Assembly: GCA_015057555.1 (NCBI GenBank)
Contig: SVEC01000003.1
Span: forward strand, 1-64,000
Direction of reading: 5' to 3'
Length of the DNA stretch: 64,000 nucleotides
From: Lachnospiraceae bacterium
Lineage (GTDB): Bacteria > Bacillota > Clostridia > Lachnospirales > Lachnospiraceae
A program made the translations under genes and the position numbers. The notes beneath the pieces were generated by a model. It was given only the letters and a program-made list of their open reading frames with translations, did no database searches and was not told the DNA's origin. Below, one piece after another: positions 7,449-47,713 of the stretch (position 1 is its first letter; every line of letters begins with the position of its first letter).

Positions 7449-7571
7449 AAAGGATGTGCGACATAATCTTCAGCCGGCCGCGATAGGGTCTCGCTGAGCT
7501 GACCGTTGTAGTGTCAGCGAGGGGAGAACCCTAGGCAGGTCCGGCCAAGAAATTAAATTGGCACATCCTTT
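7449..7571 (-). ncRNA. Structured repeat element, copy A (putative RNA)
   Basis: A 123-bp imperfect palindrome closed by AAAGGATGTGC/GCACATCCTTT. Read on the minus strand it contains the three blocks shared with copies B (26812) and C (47572): GCCGGACCTGCCTAGGG, CGCTGACACT..ACGGTCAGCT and CGCGGCCGG. The predicted fold is an outer helix, an AU-rich imperfect helix, a CCGG/CCGG helix, an internal loop, a variable helix, and a GCTGAC/GTCAGC hairpin with an ACT..ACG loop. GU pairs in the AU-rich helix are more numerous on the minus strand, which favours that strand as RNA. It begins 56 bp after the DUF2207 gene and may also end its transcript. Confidence 0.65.
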
Positions 7572-7627
7572 ATATAGTTCTATTCTATTGACAACGTGGG
7601 CGTTCGTTTAGAACCTGTAGGAGGATA

Positions 7628-9706
7628 TTAACTTCCCCCTCCTCCGTAGCTGCCCCAGCTACGTCCACCACCAGTATATCCTCTGCTGGCGGTATTTATT
7701 CGGTGTGTATGAGCTCCACTTCGAACCGCATGTCCTATGCCGCGACTACCTCTATGAACTCTACCTGTTCTAATGTATGTGTTGTTAAATATTCCGTAAT
7801 CATAGTAATATCCCGTATCCATAGCCATGGCAGAAGCTCCCTCTGGTAGCTTAACCCCCAGAGCCGCTGTAACCTTTGTAGGAATTCCAAAGGCTGTGGC
7901 GTAGATGAAAAATCTTTCCCATATAGGCATATTTGCCACATTAGAATCAGATATAATATGGTCACTCTTTAGATAGTTGTAAAGTCCTCTCCACTTAGCG
8001 TATTCATTTTCGCCAACCTGAGTGAGAAGCACATAATTACCAGCTGTTTTGTAAAGGTAGATAGCACATACCAAGCAGGTTATACCTAATACAAAATATG
8101 CTCCGAATGCAAGGTCCAACCTAGTAAGACTAGAGAAAAGATTTACCACAATTAGTAATATAACAGCCCAATTCCTGTAAGCCTTAGCAGTCTTAAGAAG
8201 CTGGTCCTTAGGTCCTGTAAAGTCAGCCTTCTGCACATAGCCACCATTTACACCCATATTAGTGATGGCTTTCTTAATATTATCCTCGAAGTTAGCAGTG
8301 TATTCGTAATCCTGTGAAACTCTTCTCTGGAAGACGCTCATAAATATCTTGTCCCCACCAGCGTGACGCACCAGAAGGTTGTAATATAATATCTCGCTTT
8401 CAGTAAGCGGCTCTGCAGGCATAATTGATGCCTCCTGACTTTGAGCAGGATTCTTAATAGTAATCAAGGCGTCATTTGAACCATATTCTTCTATGTCTAC
8501 GTAATCCTTTCTGGCTAAGCTAAGAAGCAGTGCAGTGTAAATTCTTGAGTCGTCCTTAGGTGATTTGTCCTTGGAAAATACCAGTGCCGCAGCAAAGTTA
8601 GGATCTAAGTCACTAGGAATTCCAGTATAGAACTCCGGTACCTCTGCAGGCTGGTAGAATTTATGCAGTGCATTCATACGCTTTCTAGTGTTAAAGGTAT
8701 GGAAAAGTATGTAGCCGGAGATAGCAAATAAAATAATAAATACCGCAATTTTAGTTGTATTTGCCATGGCTGGTTTATTTGCCTCTGCTTTAGCCTCAGC
8801 ACGAATTTCATTTAAGGCATAGTCGAGGGTGTAATCATTATATCTTGCACTGTCAGTAAATATATGCTTATCTGCTCCGTAGGCAACAAGCTCAAACTCT
8901 ATATACTGGTTATATGGCTTAAACTGTAAATCCTCCTCATCCAAATCTATGGTAAAGGTGTGATAGCCAGGGTATAGTGTAGAGGATTCATTCACGTTAA
9001 AGCCATTAGAATTTGTACCGTAGGTATAGTATTCATAGTTGCCATAAGCAGGCATATCCTCATCAGGAATAATAATCTCAGCCTTATAGGACTCTAAATC
9101 TGTAACCGGCATCTCCCCGTAAAGTAAAAGGTAAAGGTCGGAGCAATCCTTGTACTTAAGTCCCACATGATTTATCTCATAGCATATCTCAAATGTAACC
9201 TCATCCCTGTATATTCCATCCACATAGAAGAATAAAGCTTCATAGCGGTCGTTGGCCTTACTGTATGGTCCCGGACTGTGATACCAGGTACCAGCAAGCT
9301 CATCCACCTCTAAATTGTCCCATTTCAATTTGCTGCACTTCTCTAATTCCACCAATGAACCATCATCCATAACCTGGTGCACGGAAAGCACATTGTAATC
9401 AAGTCTAAGTCCGTCTACCTCCTGCTCGATTAAATCTCTCCACAGCTCATAGCATAAGTCACTCTTGCTAGACTGATGCACATCAAAGGTAACACGCTCT
9501 GTAACTATAGCCTTGGTACCGTGAGCTGACTCGTCATTATATATTATCTGTGCCTCTACATCAGTAAGCTTTTGATAATCCCATGGTGATAAATCCACAT
9601 ATTCAAATATATATCCGTATTCAAATATTAGTGGAACAAGAATAGGCAACAAAAAGCATATTGCAAATAAACTGAAATATAAGGTCATACACCCCTTACC
9701 GCTCAT
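7628..9706 (-). CDS. DUF2207 family membrane protein
   Basis: A 692-aa membrane protein of the DUF2207 (YciQ-like) family. It has an N-terminal hydrophobic segment, a large extracytoplasmic beta-rich domain to about residue 310, a transmembrane helix (AVFIILFAISGYILF), a cytoplasmic region with the PSDLDPNFAAAL motif typical of the family, two further helices near residues 525-570, and a C-terminus ending in a Gly/Ser-rich tail (SYGGGGS). Function is unknown for the family. A canonical AAGGAGG precedes the ATG. It is the last gene of a minus-strand set after the DUF1538 and P-II-like genes (33 bp gap) and is followed by structured element A. Confidence 0.8.
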   Translation of the reverse strand: MSGKGCMTLYFSLFAICFLLPILVPLIFEYGYIFEYVDLSPWDYQKLTDVEAQIIYNDESAHGTKAIVTERVTFDVHQSSKSDLCYELWRDLIEQEVDGLRLDYNVLSVHQVMDDGSLVELEKCSKLKWDNLEVDELAGTWYHSPGPYSKANDRYEALFFYVDGIYRDEVTFEICYEINHVGLKYKDCSDLYLLLYGEMPVTDLESYKAEIIIPDEDMPAYGNYEYYTYGTNSNGFNVNESSTLYPGYHTFTIDLDEEDLQFKPYNQYIEFELVAYGADKHIFTDSARYNDYTLDYALNEIRAEAKAEANKPAMANTTKIAVFIILFAISGYILFHTFNTRKRMNALHKFYQPAEVPEFYTGIPSDLDPNFAAALVFSKDKSPKDDSRIYTALLLSLARKDYVDIEEYGSNDALITIKNPAQSQEASIMPAEPLTESEILYYNLLVRHAGGDKIFMSVFQRRVSQDYEYTANFEDNIKKAITNMGVNGGYVQKADFTGPKDQLLKTAKAYRNWAVILLIVVNLFSSLTRLDLAFGAYFVLGITCLVCAIYLYKTAGNYVLLTQVGENEYAKWRGLYNYLKSDHIISDSNVANMPIWERFFIYATAFGIPTKVTAALGVKLPEGASAMAMDTGYYYDYGIFNNTYIRTGRVHRGSRGIGHAVRSGAHTHRINTASRGYTGGGRSWGSYGGGGS

Positions 9707-9739
9707 AATTTATCCTCCTTGTTAATTAATATCCTTTGA

Positions 9740-10417
9740 TTAATCCTCTAAAAGTCTAAGTCCTGCAGTATCTGTAACAGGAAGAGAGAAGCATATAGCC
9801 TTGGCCTTTGTATTAAGCCCTGCCTCCTCCATAATAGCCTGCATAATAGCGTTCTTTTGCTCGGTCTTAACAACTATATACACAAGCTCCTTCTCCTGTG
9901 CCAGGGATACACCCATGAATTTTTCCGCTGCTGCCATACCTGTACCCTTGGCGTGGATAACTGTACCACCGTAGGCTCCGGCCTTTCTGGCTGCATCCAT
10001 AATAAGATTTGTATATCCAAGCTCTGCTATTACTACTATCAAATCGTGGGCTGTATTCTTCAATGTGGATTCCTCCTGTCTTTCATACTTATCATTTTCT
10101 ATCAAAAACTGTAATGCCTTTCTGCCGCCTATACTACTTAGGGGAACTGTAAATGCTATTCCTCCGCCAGGAGCATCTATCTTAAGCACTTTTTCAAGCT
10201 GTCTTTTTACAGTAAGCCATTTGTCTTCCTCCATAATGGCGGTTACAACGGTTTTCTCCTTAGATTCTAGTCCAAGCAGGTCCATGGTCTCGTTGGAAAC
10301 CGTTCCATAGCCGAGAGAGAGAAACATAACATTTAGCTCATTCTCCTGATAGAGCTTAGCATAGCTTGATGCAATTTTTCTATCCACTATAGTGGTCATC
10401 ATATATAAATTTCCCAT
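9740..10417 (-). CDS. Tandem P-II-like regulatory protein
   Basis: A 225-aa protein made of two P-II-like ferredoxin-fold halves (about 1-105 and 110-225). The second half retains a P-II-like pattern, MDAARKAGAYGGTVIHAKGTG, at the T-loop position. P-II-like proteins sense nucleotides or small metabolites and gate membrane transporters. Here the partner is almost certainly the DUF1538 membrane protein encoded only 9 bp upstream, an arrangement reminiscent of AmtB-GlnK. The usual GlnK uridylylation tyrosine motif is not visible, so control by direct ligand binding is inferred. The ligand cannot be read from sequence. Confidence 0.75.
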   Translation of the reverse strand: MGNLYMMTTIVDRKIASSYAKLYQENELNVMFLSLGYGTVSNETMDLLGLESKEKTVVTAIMEEDKWLTVKRQLEKVLKIDAPGGGIAFTVPLSSIGGRKALQFLIENDKYERQEESTLKNTAHDLIVVIAELGYTNLIMDAARKAGAYGGTVIHAKGTGMAAAEKFMGVSLAQEKELVYIVVKTEQKNAIMQAIMEEAGLNTKAKAICFSLPVTDTAGLRLLED

Positions 10418-10426
10418 ATGTCCTCC

Positions 10427-11989
10427 TTATAACTCGATAATCTCCATATCTCCATAAGCGGCAAGTGCTGTAAGGTCTGCCTGGCTGGCAAGCTCCTTGT
10501 GAAGCTTTGTATCCTTGATGCGATATACGAGTCCCATAATCTGAATAGTAATAAGTGGTGTCATGGCAACCATAGACACGATACCAAAGGCGTCAGCCAC
10601 AATATTTCCACCTAAGGCCCCGCAGGCGCCCATAGCAAATGGAAGTAAGAATGTAGCAGTCATAGGTCCTGATGCAACTCCACCTGAGTCAAAGGCGATA
10701 GCTGTAAATATTTTTGGTACGAAAAATGTAAGTACCAAGGCAATTAGATAGCCTGGTACAAGGAACCACATGATTGAGATTCCGGTAAGTACTCTGGTCA
10801 TGGCAAGACCAACTGATGCAGCTACACCTATGGACAAGCTCATGCCCATGGCCTTAGCTGAGATAGAGCCATCTGTAAGCTCCTCAACCTGCTTGGTAAG
10901 AACGAATACCGCAGGCTCAGCTTTAACGATAAAGTAACCAATCAACATACCTATAGGAATAATTATCCAAGCATAGGAAAGACCTGCTATGGTCTGCCCC
11001 AAGTAATTTCCTGCTGGCATAAAGCCTACATTTACACCGGTTAAGAAAAGCACAAGACCTATGTAAGTGTAGAAAATGCCTACAGTTATCTTGATTATAG
11101 TTGTCTTATTAATATCTCTTACTATTAGCTGAATAATAGTGAAGATTACTACTATAGGAAGCAGTGAAGCTGCAATCTCGTGTATATATGTTGGTATCCC
11201 GGCGGAGAATAATTTCCACAAATCAACAGTGTTAGCAACATCAGGAATGGAATCAGAAACCTGCTCTGAGGCTCCTGGCTCGTAGATAATTCCCAGAAGC
11301 ATAACTGCAAGGATTGGTCCTATGGAGCCCATGGACACCAAACCAAAGCTATCGTCTGCAGCATGCTTATCGCTTCGGATAGCAGAAATACCGATACCGA
11401 AGGCCATTATAAATGGAACGGTCATAGGTCCTGTTGTAACTCCACCTGAATCAAAGGCCACAGATAAGAAGTCTTTTTGAACAAATGGTGTAAGTGCAAA
11501 TATAAGCACATAGAAAAACACCAATAGATATGACAGTGGTATGCTAAGGAGCATACGAAGGATTGCCAGTACAAGAAATACAGCAACTCCAAGGGCCACC
11601 GCCAGAATAAGTGTCATATTCGGAATAGATGGAACCTGATTAGCCAGAACCTGAAGGTCCGGTTCAGATATGGTAATAACAAAGCCCATTACGAAGCTGA
11701 CCAATATAACGATAAAAAGATTCTTGGATTTAGTCATTACGGTACCGGTCCTCTCCCCTATAGGTGTCATAGAAAGCTCCACTCCTACGTTGAAGAATAG
11801 CATACCTATGACAAGTAATGTGGCACCTACTAGAAATGTCATCAATATACTAGGAGGTATAGGTGCTATGGTAAAGCAAAGCAGTAGCACTATTGCAAGA
11901 ATTGGCAGAACTGCTTTCATAGTTTCGGAGAACTTCTCGGAGAATTTATTTTTAAGTCTAAAATGTGGTAATTTCAATATTATAGTCAC
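10427..11989 (-). CDS. DUF1538 membrane protein, putative transporter
   Basis: A 520-aa polytopic membrane protein with two homologous DUF1538 halves. Each half carries the conserved pattern AFDSGGV(T/A)(T/S)GPMT (near residues 180 and 415), so the two repeats are seen directly. DUF1538 proteins are predicted transporters of unknown substrate. The protein is co-transcribed with a tandem P-II-like protein that probably gates it. The GTG at 11989 overlaps the AAAGGTGA ribosome site; a TTG four codons later (11977) has better spacing and may be the true start. Confidence 0.78.
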   Translation of the reverse strand: MTIILKLPHFRLKNKFSEKFSETMKAVLPILAIVLLLCFTIAPIPPSILMTFLVGATLLVIGMLFFNVGVELSMTPIGERTGTVMTKSKNLFIVILVSFVMGFVITISEPDLQVLANQVPSIPNMTLILAVALGVAVFLVLAILRMLLSIPLSYLLVFFYVLIFALTPFVQKDFLSVAFDSGGVTTGPMTVPFIMAFGIGISAIRSDKHAADDSFGLVSMGSIGPILAVMLLGIIYEPGASEQVSDSIPDVANTVDLWKLFSAGIPTYIHEIAASLLPIVVIFTIIQLIVRDINKTTIIKITVGIFYTYIGLVLFLTGVNVGFMPAGNYLGQTIAGLSYAWIIIPIGMLIGYFIVKAEPAVFVLTKQVEELTDGSISAKAMGMSLSIGVAASVGLAMTRVLTGISIMWFLVPGYLIALVLTFFVPKIFTAIAFDSGGVASGPMTATFLLPFAMGACGALGGNIVADAFGIVSMVAMTPLITIQIMGLVYRIKDTKLHKELASQADLTALAAYGDMEIIEL

Positions 11990-12178
11990 CTTTCTAAACT
12001 GTTATCTATAGATAAGAAATCTATTCCATTATTATACTATCATAAAATCATAGTTCTGTGTGGAAAAGATTTGTTATTAAAAGAATATGGACTTATTAGT
12101 GTAAAAATGTTACTATTCATATAAGTATGTTTATAAATAATATAATGGTAAAAGTGTACCTATAATGGGGAGAAAGAT

Positions 12179-24960: not shown

Positions 24961-26742
24961 GTGTATCAGTCTATGGAAAAAATAAGGGAGCTTGGATGGC
25001 AAAAGGTTATGATTGCCGTAGCAGCAATTGATGTGGTACTGGGTATAATTATAGGTGTAATAATGGGTGCAGTGCCAGCAGGAATTATCGTGGGAGTATT
25101 GGCAGGAGGCTTATCAGCAGGTGCTATATTTATACTTAATGGTGGAGAGATTAGAGGCCATTCTAAGAGCGATAAGTATAAGAAATTATTTATGAATCTT
25201 CCTATAGGATTTGCTCAGGCGAAGATTATTAATGACTCTATGGGTAATCCTAATGGATATTGTATCGAGGAGGCTAACGAGAGATTTGGTAGCTACTTTA
25301 ACCTTGATACTTCAGACTTCGAGGGCAAGATTCTCGGAGAGAGTAAGATAGATGTACTTCAGTCTATTAATGCTTGGTTCATGGCATATAATAACTCTGG
25401 TACTAAGGAGGGAGACTTCCTTGATGTAGAGATTACCATGGAAGAGCTTGGTAAGACCTTCAATACAGTTATGTATAAGTCTGAGGCAGACTATATCAAT
25501 ATGGTTGTTATTGATATCACTGATCTTAAGGAGACTGAAAGCAAGCTTTCTAAGGCTATTGAGGATGCTAATGCAGCATACAAGACTCAGGCAGAGTTCC
25601 TTGCAAATATGTCTCACGAGATTAGAACACCTATCAATGGTATTCTCGGTATGCTTCAGCTTACCCTTATGGCTGAGGACTTACAGGCAGATTACAGAGA
25701 TAACCTTGTAACTGCTAAGAACTGTGCAGATAACCTTCTTAGACTTATTAATGATATTCTTGATATAAGTAAGCTTGAGGCTGGTAAATACAACCTTAAG
25801 GAAGAAATATTTGATGTTAAGACAGCTATCGAAGAAACAGTTGCAGCTCAGGTTCCTACAGCTACTAACAAGGGACTTCAGCTTGATTGTACATTTGGTA
25901 ACAATATTCCAAAGCTTGTTAAGGGTGATGGACAGAGAATCCAGCAGATTCTTAACTGTCTCCTTTCAAATGCTTTGAAGTTTACATCTGAAGGTAATGT
26001 TAGAGTTAAGGTAGCAGCTATTGATGGTGAGAAGGAGAATATCACTCTTAGAATTGCGGTAGCAGATTCTGGTATCGGTATCTCAGAGAAGGATATGGAT
26101 AAGCTCTTTGTTAGATTCTCACAGGTTGATTCATCAGATACTAGAAAGTACGGTGGCTCAGGTCTTGGTCTTGTAATTTCAAAGCAGATTGCAGAGCTTA
26201 TGGGCGGTACAATCAGTGTTCAGAGTAAGGAAGGTATCGGTTCTACATTTATTGCAGAGGTACCACTTAAGATAGTTAAGGCGGCAGAGGTTGAGGCTCA
26301 GAAGGAAGCAGCTGAGAAGAAGGAAGAGGCAGCAGTGTTCTCCATCAACGCTCACAGCAAGGCTAGAATCCTTGTAGCAGAGGATGAGCCAGTTAACCAG
26401 CAGGTTATCGGTAAGCTTCTTGGTATGGCAGGCTTCTCATACGATATTGCTGAGAATGGAGAGAAGGCAGTTGAGCTCTTCAAGCAGAAGGAGTACGACG
26501 CAGCTCTCTTTGATGTACAGATGCCAGTTATGGATGGTATCGCAGCTACTCAAGAGATTCGTGATATCGAGAACAAGGAGCACAGAAAGAGACTTCCTAT
26601 CATCGCTGTTACAGCTAGAGCAATGTTTGGTGATAAGGAGAGAATCCTTGAGAACAAGCTTGATGATTACATAGCTAAACCATACAACTTAAATACAGTT
26701 GTTGAGACACTTAACAAGTATATAGACGATAAGGAAGACTAG
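24961..26742 (+). CDS. Membrane hybrid sensor histidine kinase with receiver domain
   Basis: A 593-aa hybrid kinase. Two closely spaced hydrophobic segments (about 15-60) anchor it. A PAS-like sensor region occupies about 75-190. HisKA carries the phospho-acceptor in MSHEIRTP (His at about 219). HATPase_c has DSGIGIS and GGSGLGL motifs. A C-terminal receiver has the phospho-acceptor Asp in LFDVQMP (about 518) and the conserved Lys in IAKPYN. It ends without an Hpt or output domain, so a separate Hpt protein (such as the one at 3274) and regulator are required. GTG 24961 (AGGA seven bases upstream) and ATG 24973 are both plausible starts. Confidence 0.88.
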   Translation: MYQSMEKIRELGWQKVMIAVAAIDVVLGIIIGVIMGAVPAGIIVGVLAGGLSAGAIFILNGGEIRGHSKSDKYKKLFMNLPIGFAQAKIINDSMGNPNGYCIEEANERFGSYFNLDTSDFEGKILGESKIDVLQSINAWFMAYNNSGTKEGDFLDVEITMEELGKTFNTVMYKSEADYINMVVIDITDLKETESKLSKAIEDANAAYKTQAEFLANMSHEIRTPINGILGMLQLTLMAEDLQADYRDNLVTAKNCADNLLRLINDILDISKLEAGKYNLKEEIFDVKTAIEETVAAQVPTATNKGLQLDCTFGNNIPKLVKGDGQRIQQILNCLLSNALKFTSEGNVRVKVAAIDGEKENITLRIAVADSGIGISEKDMDKLFVRFSQVDSSDTRKYGGSGLGLVISKQIAELMGGTISVQSKEGIGSTFIAEVPLKIVKAAEVEAQKEAAEKKEEAAVFSINAHSKARILVAEDEPVNQQVIGKLLGMAGFSYDIAENGEKAVELFKQKEYDAALFDVQMPVMDGIAATQEIRDIENKEHRKRLPIIAVTARAMFGDKERILENKLDDYIAKPYNLNTVVETLNKYIDDKED

Positions 26743-26768
26743 AGCTTCCCAGAGAGTGAAAGTTGTGA

Positions 26769-26797
26769 CCCCGGTACATTCTTTGTGCCGGGGTTTT
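26769..26797 (+). terminator. Terminator of the hybrid kinase gene
   Basis: CCCCGGTACA / TGTGCCGGGG form a 10-bp stem around TTCTT, followed by TTTT, 26 bp after the stop codon. Confidence 0.85.
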
Positions 26798-26811
26798 AGT
26801 ATGCTTACGAT

Positions 26812-26946
26812 TAAAAAGAGAAGGCGCAAGTTAATGTTTTTTGCCGGCCTGCCTAGGGTCGGTCCACGCTGACACTACGAACGGTCAGCTTAGTCCCGAC
26901 CACTGTCGCGGCCGTAAGGGGATTTGTTGGCACCTTCTCTTTTTTA
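26812..26946 (+). ncRNA. Structured repeat element, copy B (putative RNA)
   Basis: A 135-bp imperfect palindrome with outer arms TAAAAAGAGAAGG / CCTTCTCTTTTTTA. It shares with copies A and C the blocks GCCGGCCTGCCTAGGG, CGCTGACACT..ACGGTCAGCT and CGCGGCCG. Its variable helix is GGTCGG/CCGACC, unlike A (AGGGT.CTC/GAGACCCT) and C (TAATGC/GCATTA), so complementarity rather than sequence is kept. The outer helix also differs from A and C in compensating fashion (GAAGG/CCTTC instead of GGATG/CATCC). Several GU pairs in the AU-rich section form only in the plus-strand RNA. It lies downstream of, and in the same direction as, the hybrid kinase. Confidence 0.65.
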
Positions 26947-27065
26947 TTCTGAATATATGTGATTTTGGCACAAAGAATGTACCGGGACAACTTTCACTGT
27001 CGCCTGCGGCGACCTATGGAAGCATCTACGTATTACTTACTTTGAGATTCATTAAAAAAATCTTA

Positions 27066-29962: not shown

Positions 29963-31567
29963 ATGTCAAACATCAATTTGGAAAAGTATGGTATTACTGG
30001 TAGTGTAGAAATCGTACACAACCCATCTTTTGAGGAGTTATTTGTTGAGGAGACAAAGGCTGGTTTAGAGGGTTATGAGGTAGGTCAGGAGACAGAGCTT
30101 GGCGCTGTTAACGTTATGACTGGTATTTATACAGGTCGTTCACCTCAGGATAAGTACATCGTTATGGATGAGAATTCAAAGGACACTGTATGGTGGACTA
30201 CTCCAGATTACAAGAACGACAACCACCCAATGAGTGAGGAGGTTTGGAATACTCTTAAGGATTTAGCAGTTAAGGAGCTTTCAAACAAGAGATTATTCGT
30301 AGTAGATACATTCTGTGGTGCTAACGAAGATACTAGAATGGCAGTTAGATTCATCGTTGAGGTTGCTTGGCAGGCTCACTTTGTTAAGAACATGTTCATC
30401 ATCCCAACAGATGAGGAGCTCGCAAACTTCGAGCCAGATTTCGTAGTTTACAATGCATCAAAGGCTAAGGTTGAGAACTACAAGGAGTTAGGACTTAACT
30501 CAGAGACAGCTGTAGCATTCAACATCACAAGCAAGGAGCAGGTTATCCTTAACACTTGGTACGGTGGAGAGATGAAGAAGGGTATGTTCTCTATGATGAA
30601 CTACTACCTTCCACTTAAGGGTATCGCTTCAATGCACTGTTCAGCAAACACTGATATGAACGGCGAGAATACAGCTATTTTCTTCGGTCTTTCAGGAACA
30701 GGTAAGACTACATTATCAACTGATCCTAAGCGTCTTCTTATCGGTGATGACGAGCACGGCTGGGATGACAACGGCGTATTCAACTTCGAGGGTGGATGCT
30801 ACGCTAAGGTTATCGACCTTGATAAGGAGTCAGAGCCAGACATTTACAATGCAATCAAGAGAAACGCTCTCCTTGAGAACGTTACAGTTGATGCAAATGG
30901 TAAGATTGATTTCACTGATGGTAGTGTTACAGAGAATACTCGTGTATCATACCCAATCAACCACATTAACAATATCGTAACTCCAGTTTCAGCAGCACCT
31001 GCAGCAAAGAACGTTATCTTCCTTTCAGCAGATGCATTTGGAGTACTTCCTCCAGTTTCTGTTCTTACTCCAGAGCAGACTAAGTACTACTTCTTATCAG
31101 GATTCACTGCTAAGCTTGCTGGTACTGAGAGAGGTATTACAGAGCCAACTCCAACTTTCTCAGCTTGTTTCGGTCAGGCATTCTTAGAGTTACATCCTAC
31201 TAAGTACGCTGAGGAGCTTGTAAAGAGAATGGAGATGAGTGGAGCTAAGGCTTACTTAGTTAACACTGGATGGAATGGTACTGGAAAGAGAATCTCTATT
31301 AAGGATACTCGTGGTATCATCGATGCAATCCTTGATGGTTCAATCGAGAAGGCTGATACAAAGGTTATTCCTATGTTCAACTTCGAGGTTCCAACAGAGC
31401 TTCCAGGTGTTGATACTAACATCCTTGATCCTAGAAATACATACGCTGACGCTTCTGAGTGGGAGACTAAGGCTAAGGATCTTGCAGGACGTTTCGTAAA
31501 GAACTTCGCTAAGTATGAGGGTAACGAGGCTGGTAAGGCACTTGTAAGTGCTGGTCCACAGTTATAG
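29963..31567 (+). CDS. pckA: Phosphoenolpyruvate carboxykinase (ATP)
   Basis: A 534-aa cytosolic enzyme (EC 4.1.1.49) interconverting oxaloacetate + ATP and PEP + CO2 + ADP. The kinase P-loop GLSGTGKTT is at about residue 242, followed by the metal-binding/kinase-2 region [22 protein letters not shown] near the N-terminus is the substrate-binding motif. In rumen and gut anaerobes it often runs toward oxaloacetate for succinate formation. Heavily biased codons, a consensus promoter and a strong terminator suggest high expression as a single-gene unit. Confidence 0.97.
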
Positions 31568-31584
31568 AAACTAGATAAATAGAC

Positions 31585-31623
31585 AAAAAGAAGTCCCGGT
31601 GCAATGCACCGGGACTTCTTTTT
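31585..31623. terminator. Bidirectional terminator
   Basis: AAAAAGAAGTCCCGGTGCA / TGCACCGGGACTTCTTTTT form a perfect 19-bp stem with almost no loop, between convergent pckA and the DUF885 gene. Confidence 0.95.
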
Positions 31624-31634
31624 ATATTCATCAC

Positions 31635-33413
31635 TTACTTCTTTTCCTTAACATATTCCTCAACTATATCCTCTAAGATGTAGAACTGACATGGACCTGC
31701 GTCAAGAACAACCTTGTGGAATTCAACCTCGTTAAACTTATCTCCAAGTTCTTTTTCCGCGTATTCTCTAAGCTCTTCAAATTCAAGCCAGCCCATTACA
31801 TACATCTGGTAGTTTCCTGGTTCAGCAACTACATAGTCATAGATATCTCCAGCGGCAGAACCATCAAAACCGCTAGTATTCATATAATCAGCAGTTTCAT
31901 CTAATGACCAGCCTTCGTAGTTAACACCTATTTCAATTCTAGCACTGACTAAAAGGTTAAGCTTGGTATTAATAGCTTCAATATCGCCATAGCTCTCATC
32001 AGCGTACTTATCGTAGTAGCCATAGGACATAAGCTCAACATAGGTAGCCCATCCCTCCTGGTAGCCATTAAAGCTTAAAAGTGTACGAATTGGCTCAGGG
32101 TCATTTGATAAGAAATATACAAACTGGTACATATGTCCAGGTATTCCCTCGTGAGCAAGGGTGCTCCAAAGTCCACCGGCACTATCAGAACCTTCATTAA
32201 TATAAATTGAGTTATTCTCGTAATCATCCATAGGTGGAGTCATATAAAAGGCTGGGCTTACAATACCCTCAAGTGACTCGTGAACAGGTGATACTGTAAA
32301 ATTGATTTCAGGAATATCTGGGAATTTATCCACACACATTTCCTCAAAGTATCTAATGGTTTCCTCGGTATCTAAATCACCGTAAAGATTCTCGTAATCC
32401 TCCATGTAGCCCATATAGCCCTCATAGTTAATCATAGCTAAGGCATACATTTCACCCATAACCTCTTCAATCTCGGTGTCTAGCTTTTCTATAATCTCAT
32501 CAGGTGTTTTATCTGTACCAACCTTACTCTTGAGAAGGTACTCATAATATGCCTTTCCACCATCAAAATGTACAAGTCCCATATCGTTAGTACCTGTGCC
32601 TTTAAGGCTTGTAAAGGTATCTATAACATTTTCGTAAGAAGGAATTACAGAGTTCATAACTGCATCCTGGTTCTGCTTTTTGTAATCCTCAATTTTCTCT
32701 GGTGTCATACCAGGAACATCCCCGATTCTATCATTGAAGGTTGCGATTAGTAGATTATTTTCTGGGTCAGCTATATATTCCTGACACTGTCTTATAACCT
32801 CGTCGGCACTTTTGTCACTCATAAAGAAGCCTTTTTCGGATTTAACCTTCTCGAAGTCTAAGCATTTCTGATAGTAATCAGGAAGAAGGTTTAAAAGCGC
32901 AAGGTAATCCTTTACGTCATCCTCATCATAAAATGTATACTCTGACATTGTAATAGGAAGATTTGACTGTAAACCACTGGTGTAAGCAAATGGCTCGTAG
33001 AGATAAGGGTTCTCGTAGGAGAGAAGATTTGTCTCTAGTAGGTCAACCAAAATATCATAGGTGAGCTGCTGGTCATCTGTGAGAAGCTCATAATTAAATT
33101 CCTTAAGCTCAGCCATCTCATCCTTGATTTCCTGTGTATCCTTAGCAACTGCCTCATCGCTAACATCAAAATCCCCTAGTGTAACCTCATCCATAGTGAT
33201 GCCATAGTTCTCAGGATGAGCTAAGGTATAGTGAAGAGTTACGGTATCCTCTGTAACTGACTCCTCAAAGCTTTCCTGAAGGTAAGTATCAAATTTTTCC
33301 TGCTCCTTTTTTGCGGAAGCAGAGTTTCTGTTTTTCTCACAGCCCGCCATAGAAAGTGTCATGGCAACCACTAAAGCTATGGCTGTGATTTTTTTAAATC
33401 TCTTTTTAATCAT
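31635..33413 (-). CDS. DUF885 family lipoprotein, putative metallopeptidase
   Basis: A 592-aa exported lipoprotein. The signal peptide ends in lipobox LSMAGC. The body matches DUF885, a helical family with an HEGxPGH motif (HEGIPGH, about residues 421-427) that resembles a zinc-binding peptidase site; a downstream Glu-rich helix may supply the third ligand. Peptidase activity is inferred for the family rather than seen. ATG 33413 is chosen because GGGAGG lies seven bases upstream and the signal peptide then starts MIKKRFKK. It is a single gene convergent with pckA. Confidence 0.85.
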   Translation of the reverse strand: MIKKRFKKITAIALVVAMTLSMAGCEKNRNSASAKKEQEKFDTYLQESFEESVTEDTVTLHYTLAHPENYGITMDEVTLGDFDVSDEAVAKDTQEIKDEMAELKEFNYELLTDDQQLTYDILVDLLETNLLSYENPYLYEPFAYTSGLQSNLPITMSEYTFYDEDDVKDYLALLNLLPDYYQKCLDFEKVKSEKGFFMSDKSADEVIRQCQEYIADPENNLLIATFNDRIGDVPGMTPEKIEDYKKQNQDAVMNSVIPSYENVIDTFTSLKGTGTNDMGLVHFDGGKAYYEYLLKSKVGTDKTPDEIIEKLDTEIEEVMGEMYALAMINYEGYMGYMEDYENLYGDLDTEETIRYFEEMCVDKFPDIPEINFTVSPVHESLEGIVSPAFYMTPPMDDYENNSIYINEGSDSAGGLWSTLAHEGIPGHMYQFVYFLSNDPEPIRTLLSFNGYQEGWATYVELMSYGYYDKYADESYGDIEAINTKLNLLVSARIEIGVNYEGWSLDETADYMNTSGFDGSAAGDIYDYVVAEPGNYQMYVMGWLEFEELREYAEKELGDKFNEVEFHKVVLDAGPCQFYILEDIVEEYVKEKK

Positions 33414-42204: not shown

Positions 42205-42215
42205 CTGAGACCAGC

Positions 42216-42278
42216 AGAAAAAAGCAGGAATGGGACTTCCGTGCTCGCACGTAGAAGTCACCATTCCTGCTTTTTTCT
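42216..42278. terminator. Long bidirectional terminator
   Basis: AGAAAAAAGCAGGAAT / ATTCCTGCTTTTTTCT continue inward through GACTTC/GAAGTC and CGTGC/GCACG. The rod-like stem is flanked by A- and T-tracts. Confidence 0.92.
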
Positions 42279-42281
42279 ATT

Positions 42282-42418: not shown

Positions 42419-42446
42419 ATGGTCTCAGTTGCTTTATGAGCTTCCA

Positions 42447-42483
42447 TGGGTAGTGCGATTAAGAAACCGAGCACTACTACCCA
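42447..42483. repeat. Solitary hairpin of the TGGGTAGT family
   Basis: TGGGTAGT / ACTACCCA arms enclose a 21-nt loop and are followed by CAGGAAACTAG. The same 11 bases occur in the loop of the third hairpin in the array at 44207-44366, so this is a relocated relative. Confidence 0.8.
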
Positions 42484-42569
42484 CAGGAAACTAGGAAAAT
42501 CAGGTGGAAATAGACAAATAATCAAAATTGTATTATAGTAAAACAAGAAAAACAAACGAGGAACACATT

Positions 42570-43337
42570 ATGAAAAAAACAATACACATAGTAATGCAAA
42601 TTATATTTATTATATTAGGAACACTTGTCCTTGCAAATGGCCTATATGCATCCACAGTATGCAATATGAACGCAGGTCTCATAGTAAACATATTACTAGG
42701 AATAATTATTTTGGCGTATGGTATATTTTACAGACCACTAATCAAAAGGATTCCTAAATGGTTTATAGGCTTGTTTTACCTTGGCCTTACAGTATTGGCT
42801 GTAGTAATCCCAACACTATTTATATCTGGAAGAACCGACAACGTTACCTACCAAGAAGACGCCATAATAGTTTTAGGCGCAGCTGTGAGAGGAGAGAGAA
42901 TATCAGGGGCACTTCAGAGAAGGCTTGACGCAGCCATCGACTATTATGAGGAAAATCCAGAGGTGGTTATTGTGGTAACTGGAGGCAAAGGACCACAGGA
43001 GGATATTACGGAGGCTCTTGCCATGGAGCGATACCTTGTGGCAAATGGTATTCCTAAGGACAAAATCATCAAGGAAGAAAAGGCTACCAGTACCTACGAA
43101 AATTTCAAATATTCCAAGGAATTATTGGATGAGTATTTTGGTCAGCAGGGAAAGACAGATTATGAATTGGCATATATAACCGATGATTATCACATTTATC
43201 GAGCAGGTCAATTAGCAAAAATAGCTGGGCTCGGTGAGATGACACATTGTCACAGTAATACACATAAAACCATAATACTTCCTAGTGGGTTAAGGGAGTG
43301 CATGGCCATAGTGAAGCTGTGGGTATTTAAGAATTAA
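42570..43337 (+). CDS. YdcF/SanA-like (DUF218) membrane protein
   Basis: A 255-aa protein with three N-terminal transmembrane helices (about 5-95) and a DUF218/YdcF-SanA domain (about 105-250). Typical family motifs are AIIVLGAAV near 106, VVTGGKGPQED near 143 and EEKATSTYENFKYSKELL near 175. The domain is extracytoplasmic and implicated in envelope or vancomycin-related phenotypes in other bacteria; the reaction is unknown. ATG 42570 follows GAGGA. A terminator shared with the convergent gene follows. Confidence 0.82.
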   Translation: MKKTIHIVMQIIFIILGTLVLANGLYASTVCNMNAGLIVNILLGIIILAYGIFYRPLIKRIPKWFIGLFYLGLTVLAVVIPTLFISGRTDNVTYQEDAIIVLGAAVRGERISGALQRRLDAAIDYYEENPEVVIVVTGGKGPQEDITEALAMERYLVANGIPKDKIIKEEKATSTYENFKYSKELLDEYFGQQGKTDYELAYITDDYHIYRAGQLAKIAGLGEMTHCHSNTHKTIILPSGLRECMAIVKLWVFKN

Positions 43338-43355
43338 TATCATTAAAAGCTGGAT

Positions 43356-43407
43356 AAAAACATCCTAAAGGTTAGATAAATGATATCTAGCGTTTGGGAT
43401 GTTTTTT
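43356..43407. terminator. Bidirectional terminator
   Basis: AAAAACATCC.. / ..GGGATGTTTTTT with an inner TTAGAT/ATCTAG stem, between convergent genes. Confidence 0.85.
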
Positions 43408-43412
43408 ATGAC

Positions 43413-43958
43413 TTAAGTAAAATAATATTTTACAAGCTCTTCAATCATTCCTATGTCCAAGGGGTTATCTTTGGTTTCGAAGGTGGTTATTAGATTAATA
43501 GATGGGTAAATGTCATTTGAGATGTAGGTTTGTAGCTTTGTCATTGCATTGTGAGCATAAGAAGGATTATCGATTAATCCAAAATGCTCCCAGTAGAAGA
43601 TTTGATTGGTTACAGGATGCATAATAGTAAAATCGGGATAAATGGTCAAGCCATTTAGACTTAGTCCACATTCATACCGAAATGGAATATTGTGAGAAGA
43701 CAAAATATTGGCTATGATAACCTCGGATTTCGAACGGACGAGTCCTCCCTGAATAGTCTTAAATTTTAGACCTTCTGGATAGCTTTTGTTTTTGTCAAAT
43801 ACTTCAGATGACCATGAAATTATGATGGTATTGCTTGTGGAAACTATTCCTGAAAGTAACCTTTGATATTCAGGATTTTGTTCTAGAAAAATGTCAGAGA
43901 AGTTTTCTTTTGGATAATGAGTAAGACATTCTTCAATGGCTTTCAGTTCTGTTAACAA
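43413..43958 (-). CDS. 5'-truncated PD-(D/E)XK-like nuclease family protein
   Basis: A 181-aa frame. SKSEVIIA, YPDFTI and YWEHFGL give the spaced acidic/basic residues expected of PD-(D/E)XK nuclease folds. From memory, Lachnospiraceae have many related proteins, roughly 250-300 aa long, ending the same way; this copy lacks their N-terminal part. The coding-like frame continues 21 codons upstream of the first possible start (TTG 43958) to a stop at 44022-44024, with family-like residues AEKLALKKYY, and has no proper ribosome site. I therefore regard it as a 5'-decayed remnant, though a short product cannot be excluded. Confidence 0.6.
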   Translation of the reverse strand: MLTELKAIEECLTHYPKENFSDIFLEQNPEYQRLLSGIVSTSNTIIISWSSEVFDKNKSYPEGLKFKTIQGGLVRSKSEVIIANILSSHNIPFRYECGLSLNGLTIYPDFTIMHPVTNQIFYWEHFGLIDNPSYAHNAMTKLQTYISNDIYPSINLITTFETKDNPLDIGMIEELVKYYFT

Positions 43959-44146
43959 TCCTTCTAGTTTAACTTGATAGTATTTTTTTAGAGCTAGCTT
44001 TTCAGCTTTCTTTTTCCTTAATCAGTACATTATAAATCGTAAAAAGTCCTCCTTTCCATATGGAAAAATATTGATAATAATATCGCTTCTTTGTAAAAAA
44101 ATCTAATATCCCCTGGAAATTGATTGAATAAATCTTTTGATAATAT
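43959..44146. other. Noncoding decay region upstream of truncated gene
   Basis: Holds the open but startless 5' extension of the nuclease-like frame (to 44021), a minus-strand AAAGGAGG with no usable start after it, and a perfect palindrome TTTCCATATGGAAA (44053-44066). No intact gene is seen. Confidence 0.5.
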
Positions 44147-44177
44147 TTGAAAAGAAAAATAAACCCGTAGCTATAAT
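44147..44177 (+). promoter_or_regulatory. Possible promoter in front of hairpin array
   Basis: TTGAAA (44147-44152) and perfect TATAAT (44172-44177) with a long 19-bp spacer, about 30 bp before the first array hairpin. Confidence 0.4.
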
Positions 44178-44206
44178 ATATAGTGCTTAGTTTGTAATGT
44201 CAAGCG

Positions 44207-44366
44207 TGGGTAGTAGAGGGGGTTCTTATGTGTTACTACCCATACGGGATATGCCACCAGGAGGGAATGGGTAGTAGAGATGCTGAAATAATACTTACTA
44301 CCCACGGGAGGTACAGAAGCAAGCGAGAATGGGTAGTACGGACAGGAAACTAGAGGCTACTACCCA
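44207..44366 (+). repeat. Tandem array of three TGGGTAGTA hairpins
   Basis: Three units start at 44207, 44268 and 44330 (61-62 bp period). Each has perfect 9-bp arms TGGGTAGTA / TACTACCCA around 18-19-nt loops of different sequence, separated by 25-bp linkers rich in GGAGG and GAA. Stems are invariant while loops differ. No cas, reverse-transcriptase or toxin gene is adjacent. It could be transcribed from the TATAAT upstream; the strand is assigned on that basis only. Confidence 0.8.
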
Positions 44367-44456
44367 CAGGAGGGAAAACAGCAAGCAGGTCAAGTACATT
44401 TACCCACATTTCACAAATATTTCATAATATTTACAAAGAAATTTCTTGCATTAATA

Positions 44457-44483
44457 TTGACAATGCTACATAAATATTATAAG
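44457..44483 (+). promoter_or_regulatory. Possible promoter of the MacB-like gene
   Basis: TTGACA (44457-44462) and TATAAG (44478-44483) with a short 15-bp spacer, about 65 bp upstream of the start. Confidence 0.45.
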
Positions 44484-44548
44484 TTGGTGTAGTTTGGAAA
44501 TGGTTTAATGGAAAACTATACATATACATCAACATAGGAGGTAAAATC

Positions 44549-47500
44549 ATGTTAGAGCTTAAAGGCATAAAGAAGGATTACCCTGCCGGTAGTGGTGTGG
44601 TTCATGCTCTTAAGGGAATTGACCTTAGATTCCGTAAGGCAGAGTTCGTGTCTATCTTAGGACAGTCAGGCTGTGGTAAGACTACAATGCTTAATATCAT
44701 CGGTGGATTAGATGGTTACACAGAGGGAGACCTTGTAATCAATGGAATTTCCACTAAGGAGTACAAGGACAGAGACTGGGATGCATACAGAAACCATTCT
44801 ATTGGTTTCGTGTTCCAGAGCTACAACTTAATTCCACATCAGTCAGTGCTTCAAAATGTAGAGATAGCACTTTCCTTGTCAGGAGTTTCAAAGGCAGAGA
44901 GAAGAGCTAGAGCGAAGCAGGCTCTTGAGGACGTAGGTCTTGGAGATCAGCTTAAGAAAAAGCCAAGCGAGATGTCAGGTGGACAGATGCAGAGAGTTGC
45001 CATAGCAAGAGCATTGGTTAATAACCCAGACATTATCCTTGCAGATGAGCCAACTGGAGCCCTTGACACAGAGACCAGTGTGCAGGTTATGGATATCCTT
45101 AAGAAGATATCTAAGGATAGACTTATAATTATGGTAACACATAACCCAGAGCTTGCCGAGAAATATTCTTCAAGAATAATCAGAATGTTGGACGGACTTA
45201 TTACAGACGATTCTGCTCCGCTTACAGATGAGGAAATCGCTGCAGAGGAGAAGACTTTTGCAGAGGAAAAGGAAGCAAACAAGGGCAAGAAGAAAAAGAA
45301 GGAGAAGAAGCCTTCTATGAAGTTTTGGACTTCATTTATGCTTTCCCTTAAGAACTTATTTACAAAGAAGGGACGTACCATACTTACCTCTTTTGCAGGT
45401 TCTATCGGTATTATAGGTATTGCACTTATTCTTGCTATATCAACAGGTATGACAAAATATATAAATGATGTGCAGGAAAGCACTCTTTCAGCATATCCAC
45501 TTACCTTAGAGGCTAAAACGGTAGAGATGTCAGCCATTATAGAATCATTTATGAATGTGGCTAAGGACAATGAGGAGCATGAGAAGGATGCGGTATATAA
45601 GCAGACTGCCCTCTATGATATGATTGACGCCATGAACAATGTTGAGGAGAGCGAGAACGACCTTAAGACATTTAATGATTACCTTAGAACACAGGTGGCA
45701 GATGAAAATACTGAGCTTCATAAGGCGGTAAATGGTATCCAATATACATACGACTTGAATATGCTTATCTACACCGAAAATGTAGATGGAGAGATTATGG
45801 ATACCAACCTAGAGCAGGTATTGATAGATTTATTTATAAAGTATTTGGATGTAGATATGTCTGCCATGTCATCTACATCAGCATTAGGACAGTCATCTAT
45901 GGGTCAGATGAGTGCTATGAGCATGGGCACAACCCTGTGGCAGGAGCTTCTGCCGGGCTTGGATGGGGCACCTGTAAATGATCTTATACTAGACCAGTAT
46001 GATGTGATATACGGTTCATGGCCAAATAGCTACAATGAGGTTGTACTGGTTGTAAACCAGAATAACGAGTTAGATGATATTGTGCTATACACATTAGGTT
46101 TGCTTCCTGCGGAGGATTTGGATAACCTGGCTCAGGCAGCAGTAAATGGTGGTGAGCTTAGTGGCACAGGCGCCAATAGATGGACATATGAGGAAATATG
46201 TGCTAGAGATTACAGAACTATATTGAATGCAGATTGTTACTCTTATGATGAGGCAACTGGACTTTATACAGACCTTCGAGAGACAGAAGCGGGACTTCGC
46301 TATCTATATGATAATGGACTTACACTTAAGGTTACAGGTATAGTTCGTCCTAAGGAGGATGCTGATACCAGAATGTTAACAGGAAGCATCTGCTATACTA
46401 GTGAGCTTACAGAATATGTTATAGATAAGTCACAGGGTGCTGAGGTTATCGAAGCACAGTTGGCTAACCCTGATAGAGATGTAATCAGCGGATTGCCATT
46501 TGATACAACCACAGGAACATTGACAGACAAGGAAAAGGAAGAGGCATTTAGAGAATTTATAGATAATATGAATGATGCTGACAAGGCGGCCGCATTTGTA
46601 TCCATAAATTGTATCCCAGACAAGGCATTTGTGGAGGAGCAGCTTAAGGCAAACTTTGGTGCTATGACCAGAGTAGACAAGGAGGCTATGCTCTTAGAGG
46701 GAATCGGCTCACAGGTTGGTGTAAGCGAGGATGACATTGTGGAATACCTGGCAAATATGTCTGATGAGGAATTCGATGAGATATTCAATCAGCTAGCAAC
46801 TGAGCAGATAAAGGCTCAGTATGCACAGCAGGTTATTGCACAGATGGCAACCATGCAGCCAGAGGAGCTTCTTATGGGCCTTCAGGCGGCACTTCCTAAC
46901 TACACTACAGAGCAGTGTGCAGTGTATTACGACGAGCTTGTCGAATTCTCAGACTCATCCTACGAAGCAAATCTGCTTGCTATGGGATATGTTGAGCTTG
47001 AGCATCCGGCGTCAATAAATATCTATGCTTCATCATTTGAGAACAAGGACATAATCACTGCAGCAATTGAAAACTATAACAATGATGTAGAAGAGCTTCA
47101 GCAGATTAAGTATACAGATTACTTAGGAATTATGATGTCATCAATCACAACAATTATCAATGCTATCACCTACGTGCTTATAGCCTTTGTTGCTATTTCA
47201 CTTGTAGTATCATCTATAATGATTGGAGTAATAACACTTATTTCTGTACAGGAGAGAACCAAGGAGATTGGTATCCTTCGTGCAATCGGTGCATCTAAGA
47301 AAAATGTATCAAGAATGTTCAATGCAGAGACTATGATAGTGGGCTTTGCCTCGGGACTTTTAGGTGTAGTGGTAACATACTTACTTTGTATACCAGTAAA
47401 TATGATTATTCATCACCTGACAGGAATAGAGCAGCTTAACGCATTCTTGCCTGTTCCTGCAGCTATAATTCTTGTAATAATAAGCGTATGTCTTACTCTT

Positions 47501-47569
47501 ATATCAGGAATTATACCTTCTAGAAGTGCAGCTAAGAAGGATCCGGTGGTTGCACTTAGAACTGAGTAG
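44549..47569 (+). CDS. MacB-like ABC transporter (ATPase-permease fusion)
   Basis: A 1006-aa single-chain ABC protein of the MacB/FtsX superfamily. The N-terminal ATPase (1-225) has Walker A GQSGCGKTT, signature MSGGQMQRVAIARAL, Walker B IILADEPTGAL and the H-switch VTHNPEL. A Lys-rich linker leads to the first transmembrane helix near 280, then an extracytoplasmic domain of over 500 residues with Met/Ser-rich and acidic parts. Three C-terminal helices form the FtsX domain (QERTKEIGILRAIGASKKNV). Such proteins couple ATP hydrolysis to extracellular work, exporting peptides or lipoproteins or transmitting signals. AGGAGG precedes the ATG. Structured element C begins three bases after the stop codon. 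Confidence 0.9.
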   Translation: MLELKGIKKDYPAGSGVVHALKGIDLRFRKAEFVSILGQSGCGKTTMLNIIGGLDGYTEGDLVINGISTKEYKDRDWDAYRNHSIGFVFQSYNLIPHQSVLQNVEIALSLSGVSKAERRARAKQALEDVGLGDQLKKKPSEMSGGQMQRVAIARALVNNPDIILADEPTGALDTETSVQVMDILKKISKDRLIIMVTHNPELAEKYSSRIIRMLDGLITDDSAPLTDEEIAAEEKTFAEEKEANKGKKKKKEKKPSMKFWTSFMLSLKNLFTKKGRTILTSFAGSIGIIGIALILAISTGMTKYINDVQESTLSAYPLTLEAKTVEMSAIIESFMNVAKDNEEHEKDAVYKQTALYDMIDAMNNVEESENDLKTFNDYLRTQVADENTELHKAVNGIQYTYDLNMLIYTENVDGEIMDTNLEQVLIDLFIKYLDVDMSAMSSTSALGQSSMGQMSAMSMGTTLWQELLPGLDGAPVNDLILDQYDVIYGSWPNSYNEVVLVVNQNNELDDIVLYTLGLLPAEDLDNLAQAAVNGGELSGTGANRWTYEEICARDYRTILNADCYSYDEATGLYTDLRETEAGLRYLYDNGLTLKVTGIVRPKEDADTRMLTGSICYTSELTEYVIDKSQGAEVIEAQLANPDRDVISGLPFDTTTGTLTDKEKEEAFREFIDNMNDADKAAAFVSINCIPDKAFVEEQLKANFGAMTRVDKEAMLLEGIGSQVGVSEDDIVEYLANMSDEEFDEIFNQLATEQIKAQYAQQVIAQMATMQPEELLMGLQAALPNYTTEQCAVYYDELVEFSDSSYEANLLAMGYVELEHPASINIYASSFENKDIITAAIENYNNDVEELQQIKYTDYLGIMMSSITTIINAITYVLIAFVAISLVVSSIMIGVITLISVQERTKEIGILRAIGASKKNVSRMFNAETMIVGFASGLLGVVVTYLLCIPVNMIIHHLTGIEQLNAFLPVPAAIILVIISVCLTLISGIIPSRSAAKKDPVVALRTE

Positions 47570-47571
47570 GG

Positions 47572-47713
47572 AAATATATAAAGAGGATGTGCGAATATAC
47601 TTAGAATCCCGGTCTGTCTAGGGATAATGCTTCGCTGACACTTAAGACGGTCAGCTGCGCATTACCCTGCCGCGGCCGGTTTCGAGGTTATAGCGCACAT
47701 CCTTTATATATTT
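47572..47713 (+). ncRNA. Structured repeat element, copy C (putative RNA)
   Basis: A 142-bp imperfect palindrome. The outer stem AAATATATAAAG.GGATGTGCG / CGCACATCCTTTATATATTT is about 20 bp with a one-base bulge. It contains the shared blocks CCCGGTCTGTCTAGGG, CGCTGACACT..ACGGTCAGCT and CGCGGCCGG. The variable helix here is AGGG.TAATGC/GCATTACCCT. The RNA strand matches A and B by alignment. Directly adjoining the ABC gene's stop codon, it is that gene's 3' UTR and may serve as its terminator. Confidence 0.68.

What the first reader, a model, noticed from the sequence alone, without database searches (positions are those of the whole stretch)
7449..47713. Three dispersed structured elements (A, B, C) with conserved blocks and compensating helices
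Elements at 7449-7571 (minus), 26812-26946 (plus) and 47572-47713 (plus) align in one orientation. Shared blocks are (G/C)CCGG..CTG(C/T)CTAGGG, CGCTGACACT...ACGGTCAGCT and YCGCGGCCG. Between the blocks, the variable helix is AGGGT.CTC/GAGACCCT in A, GGTCGG/CCGACC in B and TAATGC/GCATTA in C: different sequence, same pairing. The closing helix in B (GAAGG/CCTTC) also differs from A and C (GGATG/CATCC). All three lie just downstream of a gene and in the same direction (56, 70 and 3 bp after stop). GU pairs in the AU-rich helix favour that strand as RNA. Three copies in 64 kb implies many per genome. It may be a 3'-UTR/terminator-linked regulatory RNA or a REP/ERIC-like mobile palindrome.
Basis: seen in the sequence. 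Interest (0 to 1): 0.85.

Follow-up and report, generated by a model that had tools for sequence, protein, structure and literature searches.

The report
Repeated hairpins acting as gene-end terminators
About forty related folded DNA repeats sit at gene ends in this gut bacterium, probably stopping transcription from both sides, and their paired arms change together even though the sequences differ from site to site.

Summary
Observation confirmed. A, B and C are three of about 40 copies per genome of a 120-140 bp palindromic repeat without an Rfam match. It is dense in 5 of 37 genomes of one ruminant Lachnospiraceae genus; no match in 298 other sampled genomes of the family. Covariation is strong: 15 of 24 core pairs change on both sides, 0 of 500 shuffles reach that. 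A strand-specific regulatory RNA is not favoured: copies lie mostly between convergent genes, rarely divergent ones, in either orientation; 11 of 58 orthologous comparisons are inverted; both strands fold about equally well. At site C four relatives have terminator-like hairpins instead. Best reading: terminator-like interspersed palindromes working as bidirectional intrinsic terminators. A shared structured cap (P2-P4) sits on an outer stem (P1) that varies by site. Copies nest, invert and swap helices; three look corrected along one arm. How copies arise is unknown. Closest known kinds: pneumococcal SPRITE and BOX repeats; not a RAYT-driven REP system.

The parts
7449..7571 (-). Element A: P1 AAAGGATGTGC/GCACATCCTTT, linker, P2-P4 core at 7469-7553; 56 bp after the stop of the minus-strand ORF 7628-9706, facing the plus-strand ORF that ends at 7353 (convergent)
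26809..26948 (+). Element B: P1 GATTAAAAAGAGAAGGCGC..., P2-P4 core at 26835-26920; 66-70 bp (by stem boundary) after the stop of ORF 24961-26742 (sensor-kinase-like by my reading)
47576..47711 (+). Element C: P1 ATATAAAGAGGATGTGCG/CGCACATCCTTTATATAT, core at 47600-47684; 6 bp after the stop of ORF 44549-47569 (ABC-transporter-like by my reading), before a tRNA gene at 47771-47858; the fold extends the stem out to 47572
26755..26998 (+). Composite around B: concentric inverted repeat AGTGAAAGTTG...CAACTTTCACT enclosing a terminator hairpin, element B, and the reverse complement of the hairpin
   Evidence: positions read from the sequence
26769..26797 (+). Terminator hairpin CCCCGGTACAT..GTGCCGGGG with TTTT, left arm of the composite; a similar lone hairpin stands at this place in relative G008
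26967..26987 (+). Right arm: reverse complement of the terminator hairpin including its loop
26999..27013 (+). Short hairpin GTCGCCTGCGGCGAC after the composite; hairpins of the same form follow other composites

Best explanation
This is a genus-level family of small interspersed palindromes (28, 40, 40 and 42 model matches in the four densest genomes) that sit at gene 3' ends and most likely work as bidirectional intrinsic terminators. The outer stem P1, with A-rich 5' and T-rich 3' flanks, would do the terminating on either strand. A conserved cap (P2, asymmetric internal loop, P3, internal loop, P4 with apical loop) is shared between copies, while P1 varies from site to site independently of the cap. 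Shown: copy number, 3'-end and convergent bias, mixed orientation, covariation, terminator-like hairpins at the orthologous place in relatives, nesting, inversion, block exchange of P3, and three copies perfected along one arm. Inferred: termination itself; that the coupled arm changes arise largely from template switching and ectopic exchange between copies as well as from selection for pairing; and that the conserved internal loops are a binding or processing site. Unknown: what makes new copies.
For: Copy number and range: 40, 28, 40, 42 and 10 model matches in G000, G008, G012, G018 and G046; G011 and G045 have two and one weak, divergent matches; 30 of 37 have none (at most 121 candidates scored per genome). 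Context: of 112 distinct copies 97 could be classified (12 at a locus edge, 3 inside a called ORF): 54 convergent, 42 tandem, 1 divergent. Counted by gap, 43 of 80 element gaps are convergent against 28 of 236 other gaps of >=60 bp in the same loci, Fisher p 2e-13; divergent 3 of 80 against 69 of 236, p 3e-7. 33 of 54 convergent copies have both gene ends within 60 bp, leaving little room for another terminator. T-rich 3' flank in 84 of 103 and A-rich 5' flank in 70 of 103, against 78 and 54 of 203 control stretches. Site C: G008, G012, G018 and G046 show no element as far as their contigs reach, and each has a different terminator-like hairpin after the gene. Site B: G012 and G008 have simple terminator-like hairpins and no element; G018 has the composite with one element nested in another; G046 is unresolved. 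P1 uncoupled from core: in 72 same-genome pairs with core identity >=0.95, mean P1 similarity is 0.53 (shuffled 0.46) and 3% reach 0.8. Coupled change: the orthologous trio L065/L088/L140, flanks 90-95% identical, shares P1 and P2 but has P3 swapped in both arms. Templating: 117 of 119 apical hairpins have no Watson-Crick pair directly beyond the hairpin, two (L070, L117) have exactly 9; L200 has its other internal loop made perfectly complementary. Inversion: 11 of 58 comparisons. P1, scored on Watson-Crick pairs only: 1445 of 1506 Watson-Crick, 10 G-U.
Against: No transcript data exist, so termination is not shown. The simple terminator scan did not flag element C; its loop limit is 8 bases. 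Over whole arms G-U exceeds A-C (228 v 170, p 0.004 on non-independent cells), which leaves room for strand selection. Composites look strictly oriented: the upstream gene is on the element's strand in all 10 classified of 12. P1 is not wholly site-specific: similarity is above shuffled in every band of core identity, and 57 of 103 P1 stems fall in my GGNTGTGC-like group. Two of the eight inverted sites involve a partner with two elements, so they are not clean inversions. The convergent bias could simply reflect where insertions are tolerated. No clean empty site was found, so insertion and target cannot be defined. The terminator-like hairpins were recognised by eye. Perfect stems can be kept by selection alone.
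Confidence: 0.6

Rival explanations
1. A strand-specific structured RNA at mRNA 3' ends (sRNA, processing or stability element); the covariation reflects selection for the RNA fold and the conserved loops bind a ligand or protein.
For: Strong covariation, asymmetry beyond the apical hairpin kept in 117 of 119 copies, overall G-U excess, fixed orientation of the composite form in 10 of 10 classified, position after genes.
Against: Orientation is mixed among tandem genes, 16 sense and 26 antisense; 11 of 58 orthologous comparisons inverted; both strands fold about equally; few G-U in P1 and none at the two most variable P3 pairs.
Confidence: 0.2
2. A non-autonomous transposon (MITE) moved by a transposase acting in trans, selfish, with gene 3' ends merely the tolerated places.
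For: Dispersed copies, presence/absence differences at sites B and C, nested copies in L026, L087 and G018; convergent bias is also reported for pneumococcal repeats and IS elements (PMC3049150, passages).
Against: Outer ends are not a conserved terminal repeat: P1 differs even between copies with near-identical cores. No Y1 transposase (PF01797) match in G000, G008, G012 or G018. Not found with one copy as query in the plasmid and phage collections, nor with one exact pattern in viral contigs. Other transposase families were not searched.
Confidence: 0.3
3. A transposase-driven REP (RAYT) system.
For: Many intergenic palindromes after genes, as described for REPs (PMC3733652, abstract).
Against: Y1 transposase not found in four of the five element-rich genomes; the fifth, G046, has only a fragment match of 36 of 121 positions. 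121-141 bp in the 30 copies measured where REPs are 20-40 bp.
Confidence: 0.03

Closest known systems
SPRITE repeats of Streptococcus pneumoniae (PMC3049150, passages seen)
   Same: Small interspersed repeat with AAAA/TTTT ends, resembles a Rho-independent terminator, strongly enriched between convergent genes and near gene 3' ends, mainly in close relatives.
   Different: SPRITE is described as an 18 bp duplex followed by a U-rich tract. Here a conserved structured cap sits on a variable stem, with nesting, inversion and composite forms. No sequence comparison was run.
BOX elements of S. pneumoniae (PMC3049150, passages)
   Same: Modular, tightly folded small repeats, also enriched between convergent genes.
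   Different: BOX has three sequence modules, terminal inverted repeats and target duplications; none of these could be defined here.
bcr1 of the Bacillus cereus group (table rows and a reference in PMC2267715; the original paper is not held)
   Same: Repeat of similar size (147 and 167 bp in the table) with a conserved structure; group-specific with mobile-element features according to the title of the cited paper.
   Different: Not compared by sequence; further details would be recalled only.
REP elements with RAYT transposases (PMC3733652, abstract)
   Same: Extragenic palindromes, mostly downstream of coding regions and between convergent or unidirectional ORFs.
   Different: 20-40 bp, GTAG/CGTC-tagged; GTAG type tied to RAYTs. 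No such transposase found in G000, G008, G012 or G018, and only a fragment in G046.
Template-switch maintained hairpins (PMC8794818, abstract and opening text; PMC7202029, start of abstract in a listing)
   Same: Hairpin-templated synthesis can create or repair perfect stems in one event and gives multi-base coupled changes.
   Different: A mutational process, not an element family; proposed here for three copies and for P1, not shown experimentally.

Membership tests
REP/RAYT system | RAYT (Y1_Tnp, PF01797) in the genome | tested here: not met
   No match in G000, G008, G012, G018; one fragment match (36 of 121 positions) in G046; assemblies are 82-98% complete
REP/RAYT system | 20-40 bp palindrome | tested here: not met
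   30 copies measured are 121-141 bp; size criterion from PMC3733652 abstract
REP/RAYT system | GTAG or CGTC tag at one end | not tested
   No systematic search for the tags was made
Terminator-like interspersed repeat (SPRITE-like kind) | Long stem with A-rich and T-rich ends | tested here: met
   T-rich 3' 84/103, A-rich 5' 70/103, both 65/103; controls 78/203 and 54/203
Terminator-like interspersed repeat (SPRITE-like kind) | Enriched between convergent genes, close to 3' ends | tested here: met
   43/80 v 28/236 gaps; median 9.5 and 19.5 bp to the gene ends in 54 convergent sites
Terminator-like interspersed repeat (SPRITE-like kind) | Terminates transcription in vivo | not testable with these tools
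   No transcript data; only the orthologous-hairpin argument
MITE | Conserved terminal inverted repeats | tested here: not met
   P1 similarity 0.53 v shuffled 0.46 in 72 same-genome pairs with core identity >=0.95
MITE | Target-site duplication at an empty/occupied pair | tested here: inconclusive
   Flanks of the polymorphic sites seen are too diverged
Known Rfam RNA family | Match to a covariance model | tested here: not met
   No element match at gathering in the window; none at E<=1 for A, B, C; in 8 other loci nine matches at E<=10, none on an element proper, one His_leader at E 6.6 beside the element in L004 within the composite arm

The most novel reading that the evidence does not exclude
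A transposase-free hairpin-tip element: a structured cap that spreads between terminator hairpins by replication template switching and ectopic exchange, keeping each site's own stem, able to nest in its own tip and to build concentric composites from a pre-existing terminator and its inverted copy. Its covariation would then be largely a mutational by-product and not proof of selection on RNA.
Probability: 0.25. Interest if true: 0.82.

Novelty: new variant of a known kind. Interest (0 to 1): 0.62.

Why it matters
Compensatory change is the usual proof of functional RNA structure. This family shows strong covariation, yet it is found inverted between relatives, lies mostly at convergent gene ends and includes copies in which one arm appears to have templated the other. 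It is a natural test case for separating selection on RNA from hairpin-templated mutation, and an example of interspersed repeats standing where relatives have ordinary terminator-like hairpins.

Tried and rejected
Core inserted into the loop of a pre-existing terminator with P1 taken from the target: suggested by near-identical cores on different P1 stems, but not demonstrated. At site C the relatives' hairpin stems are unrelated to P1 by eye. Orthologous sites share P1 with coupled changes. The only exact GGCTGTGC...GCACAGCC hairpin with a 3-24 base loop in the own genome (L154) has no counterpart in the one relative checked, which has another small hairpin there, so its history is open.

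REP/RAYT: rejected. SbcCD loss as the reason for stable palindromes: no link seen; over-cut-off SbcD hits in 13 of 37 genomes, including element-rich G012 and G046 but not G000, G008 or G018. Mobile carriage: none with one copy as query in plasmids and phages, none with one exact pattern in viral contigs. Divergent relatives: a second type in G011 and G045 keeps P2 and the first internal loop with another tip; an order-wide DNA search with it gave one 41-base match in 392 genomes, not pursued, and phage and viral searches with it gave none. The family-wide search used stricter filters and scored at most 15 candidates per genome, nearly all genomes being one per genus, so weak relatives may be missed. 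The G-U/A-C strand test is mixed.

Rows dropped: the covariation alignment used 98 sources; L115, L146 and L153 were not given, and L096 was left out because its copy is cut by the locus end. On the 'further pair types' measure 5 of 500 shuffles reached the observed value.

Literature: nine of ten searches used. None listed this family; the absence claim covers only those searches. PMC8040213, a large set of candidate structured RNAs from human microbiomes, appeared and was not opened.

Scripts that failed or stopped early: wrong file name, redone; stopped at L115; the later groups were run except L069/L081 and L028/L082/L056, which were not, and L089/L115, where no element was called in L115.
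Full report
What is there. Each is one long hairpin: an outer stem P1, an AT-rich linker helix, P2 (CCGGCC type), a conserved asymmetric internal loop (CTGYCTAGGG facing CCCTGYCGCG), a variable P3, a second internal loop, and P4 GCTGAC/GTCAGC with a conserved apical loop. They fold with z-scores of -7.2, -3.9 and -9.0, and the opposite strands with -7.0, -5.8 and -6.3.

How many and where. DNA search of the own genome gave 31 matches at E<=10. A covariance model built from 17 copies found 40 in the own genome at E<=0.001, and in the genus 7 of 37 genomes matched: strongly G000, G008 (28), G012 (40), G018 (42) and G046 (10), weakly G011 (2) and G045 (1). An exact-pattern scan of the named genome collection (one genome for each of 84,980 species) gave 76 stretches, all in four Lachnospiraceae MAGs: RGIG4033 (roe deer), RGIG6221 (sheep), RGIG8543 (water deer) and SIG302. 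A second model matched only the own genome among 299 of the family; the other 298 include one congener (stricter filters). Plasmid and phage collections (one copy as query) and viral contigs (one pattern) gave none.

Covariation. On 106 aligned copies (103 distinct; 98 sources given), 98.1% of 2466 pair cells are standard; 15 of 24 pairs show double changes; 205 double-changed cells against 48.5 in shuffles, 0 of 500; sliding the partner by one to three columns drops paired cells to at most 47.2%. The alignment was fitted to the model structure, which favours it. The two most variable P3 pairs hold all four Watson-Crick types and no G-U. P1, with helices chosen on Watson-Crick pairs only, has 1445 Watson-Crick, 10 G-U, 17 A-C and 34 other among 1506 pairs. 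A strand test over whole arms of 107 copies is mixed: G-U 228 v A-C 170 overall, P1/linker 137 v 80, P2 54 v 9, P3 28 v 59, P4 9 v 22; cells are not independent.

Genomic setting. Of 112 distinct copies 97 could be classified with simple ORF calls: 54 convergent, 16 tandem sense, 26 tandem antisense, 1 divergent. Against other gaps of >=60 bp in the same loci the convergent excess is 43/80 v 28/236 and the divergent deficit 3/80 v 69/236 (that call counts gaps, not copies, so its numbers differ). In convergent sites the median distance to the gene ends is 9.5 and 19.5 bp, and in 33 of 54 both are within 60 bp. T-rich and A-rich flanks are above control stretches (84/103 v 78/203; 70/103 v 54/203).

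Orthologous sites. At site C four relatives carry no element as far as the contigs reach (G012 and G046 end soon after), and each has its own, different terminator-like hairpin. At site B, G012 and G008 have simple terminator-like hairpins and no element; the own genome has the composite; G018 has the composite with an element nested inside the element; G046 is not resolved because of contig ends. Sites shared between relatives often keep P1, with matched changes in both arms including a mirrored two-base indel (GGGCTGTGC against GGGCTGTGTGC), or keep nearly everything but P3, which is exchanged in both arms. Eleven of 58 pairwise comparisons, from eight sites by my reading, have the element inverted relative to its flanks; at two of the eight (L117, L073) one partner has two elements. 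At three sites the stem is essentially the same in both species (L009/L063, L062/L077, L079/L132).

Modularity and nesting. Copies L026 and L087 and the G018 site-B copy have their P3/P4 replaced by a whole second element. G008 has a hairpin that shares only the P4 tip. G011 and G045 have relatives that share P2 and the first internal loop but not the tip. Twelve of 106 copies, nine sites by my reading, sit in a larger concentric composite: outer arm, terminator hairpin with T-tract, element, reverse complement of that hairpin including its loop, outer arm, short hairpin (21 of 106 had flank-palindrome scores of 28 or more, a set that also contains other palindromes; best control score 25). 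Arms and loops of the composite differ between copies while staying largely complementary.

Templated correction. Of 119 distinct apical hairpins 117 have no Watson-Crick pair directly beyond the hairpin, because an asymmetric loop is conserved there; L070 and L117 have exactly nine perfect pairs instead, and L200 has the other loop converted to perfect complementarity. One hairpin-templated synthesis event would explain each. Such events are known from E. coli quasipalindromes (PMC7202029, start of abstract only) and have been proposed for RNA genes (PMC8794818, abstract and opening text). That the loop stays asymmetric in nearly all other copies suggests that the asymmetry is selected.

Mechanism. 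I favour a bidirectional intrinsic terminator whose P1 and flanking A/T tracts act on both strands, carrying a conserved cap of unknown binding partner, evolving by exchange between copies and by template switching. Termination, the partner and the means of spread are inference. P1 similarity between same-genome copies with core identity of 0.95 or more is little above shuffled (0.53 v 0.46, 72 pairs), although 57 of 103 P1 stems belong to one GGNTGTGC-like group by my labels; so P1 does not behave like a normal transposon end, but it is not random either.

Known kinds. SPRITE and BOX repeats of S. pneumoniae (PMC3049150, passages) are closest in behaviour; REPs (PMC3733652, abstract) share the location, but no Y1 transposase was found here apart from a fragment in G046. 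I know no described family with this combination; nine literature searches did not list one.

Noticed in passing
L164 end, L169 start (G012), L167 end and L174 start (G046): Tandem repeats of about 60 bp with a palindromic unit (GCGGGTAT...ATACCCGC plus spacer) at gene ends and contig breaks, next to the site-C and site-B orthologues.
   Followed up: no
L175:893-1169 (G008:C93), orthologous to window about 31567-31635: A different nested palindrome that shares only the P4 tip GCTGACACTTAAGACGGTCAGC; the own genome has a plain terminator-like hairpin there, G046 has tandem palindromic repeats.
   Followed up: partly
L053 (G011), L054 (G045), L060 (G011): Divergent relatives with another tip; L053 and L054 are near-identical to each other and their flanks look GC-rich by eye, so they might be contamination or a mobile piece.
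   Followed up: partly
L154:1501-1527 (own genome C8:28604-28630): Bare hairpin GGCTGTGC...GCACAGCC with T-tract and no core; absent at the orthologous place in RGIG6221.
   Followed up: partly
L171 (G008 site-B orthologue): Beside a simple terminator-like hairpin lies another inverted repeat, GTGGTATATATCCACGC...GCGTGGATGTATACCAC, with an unrelated interior.
   Followed up: no
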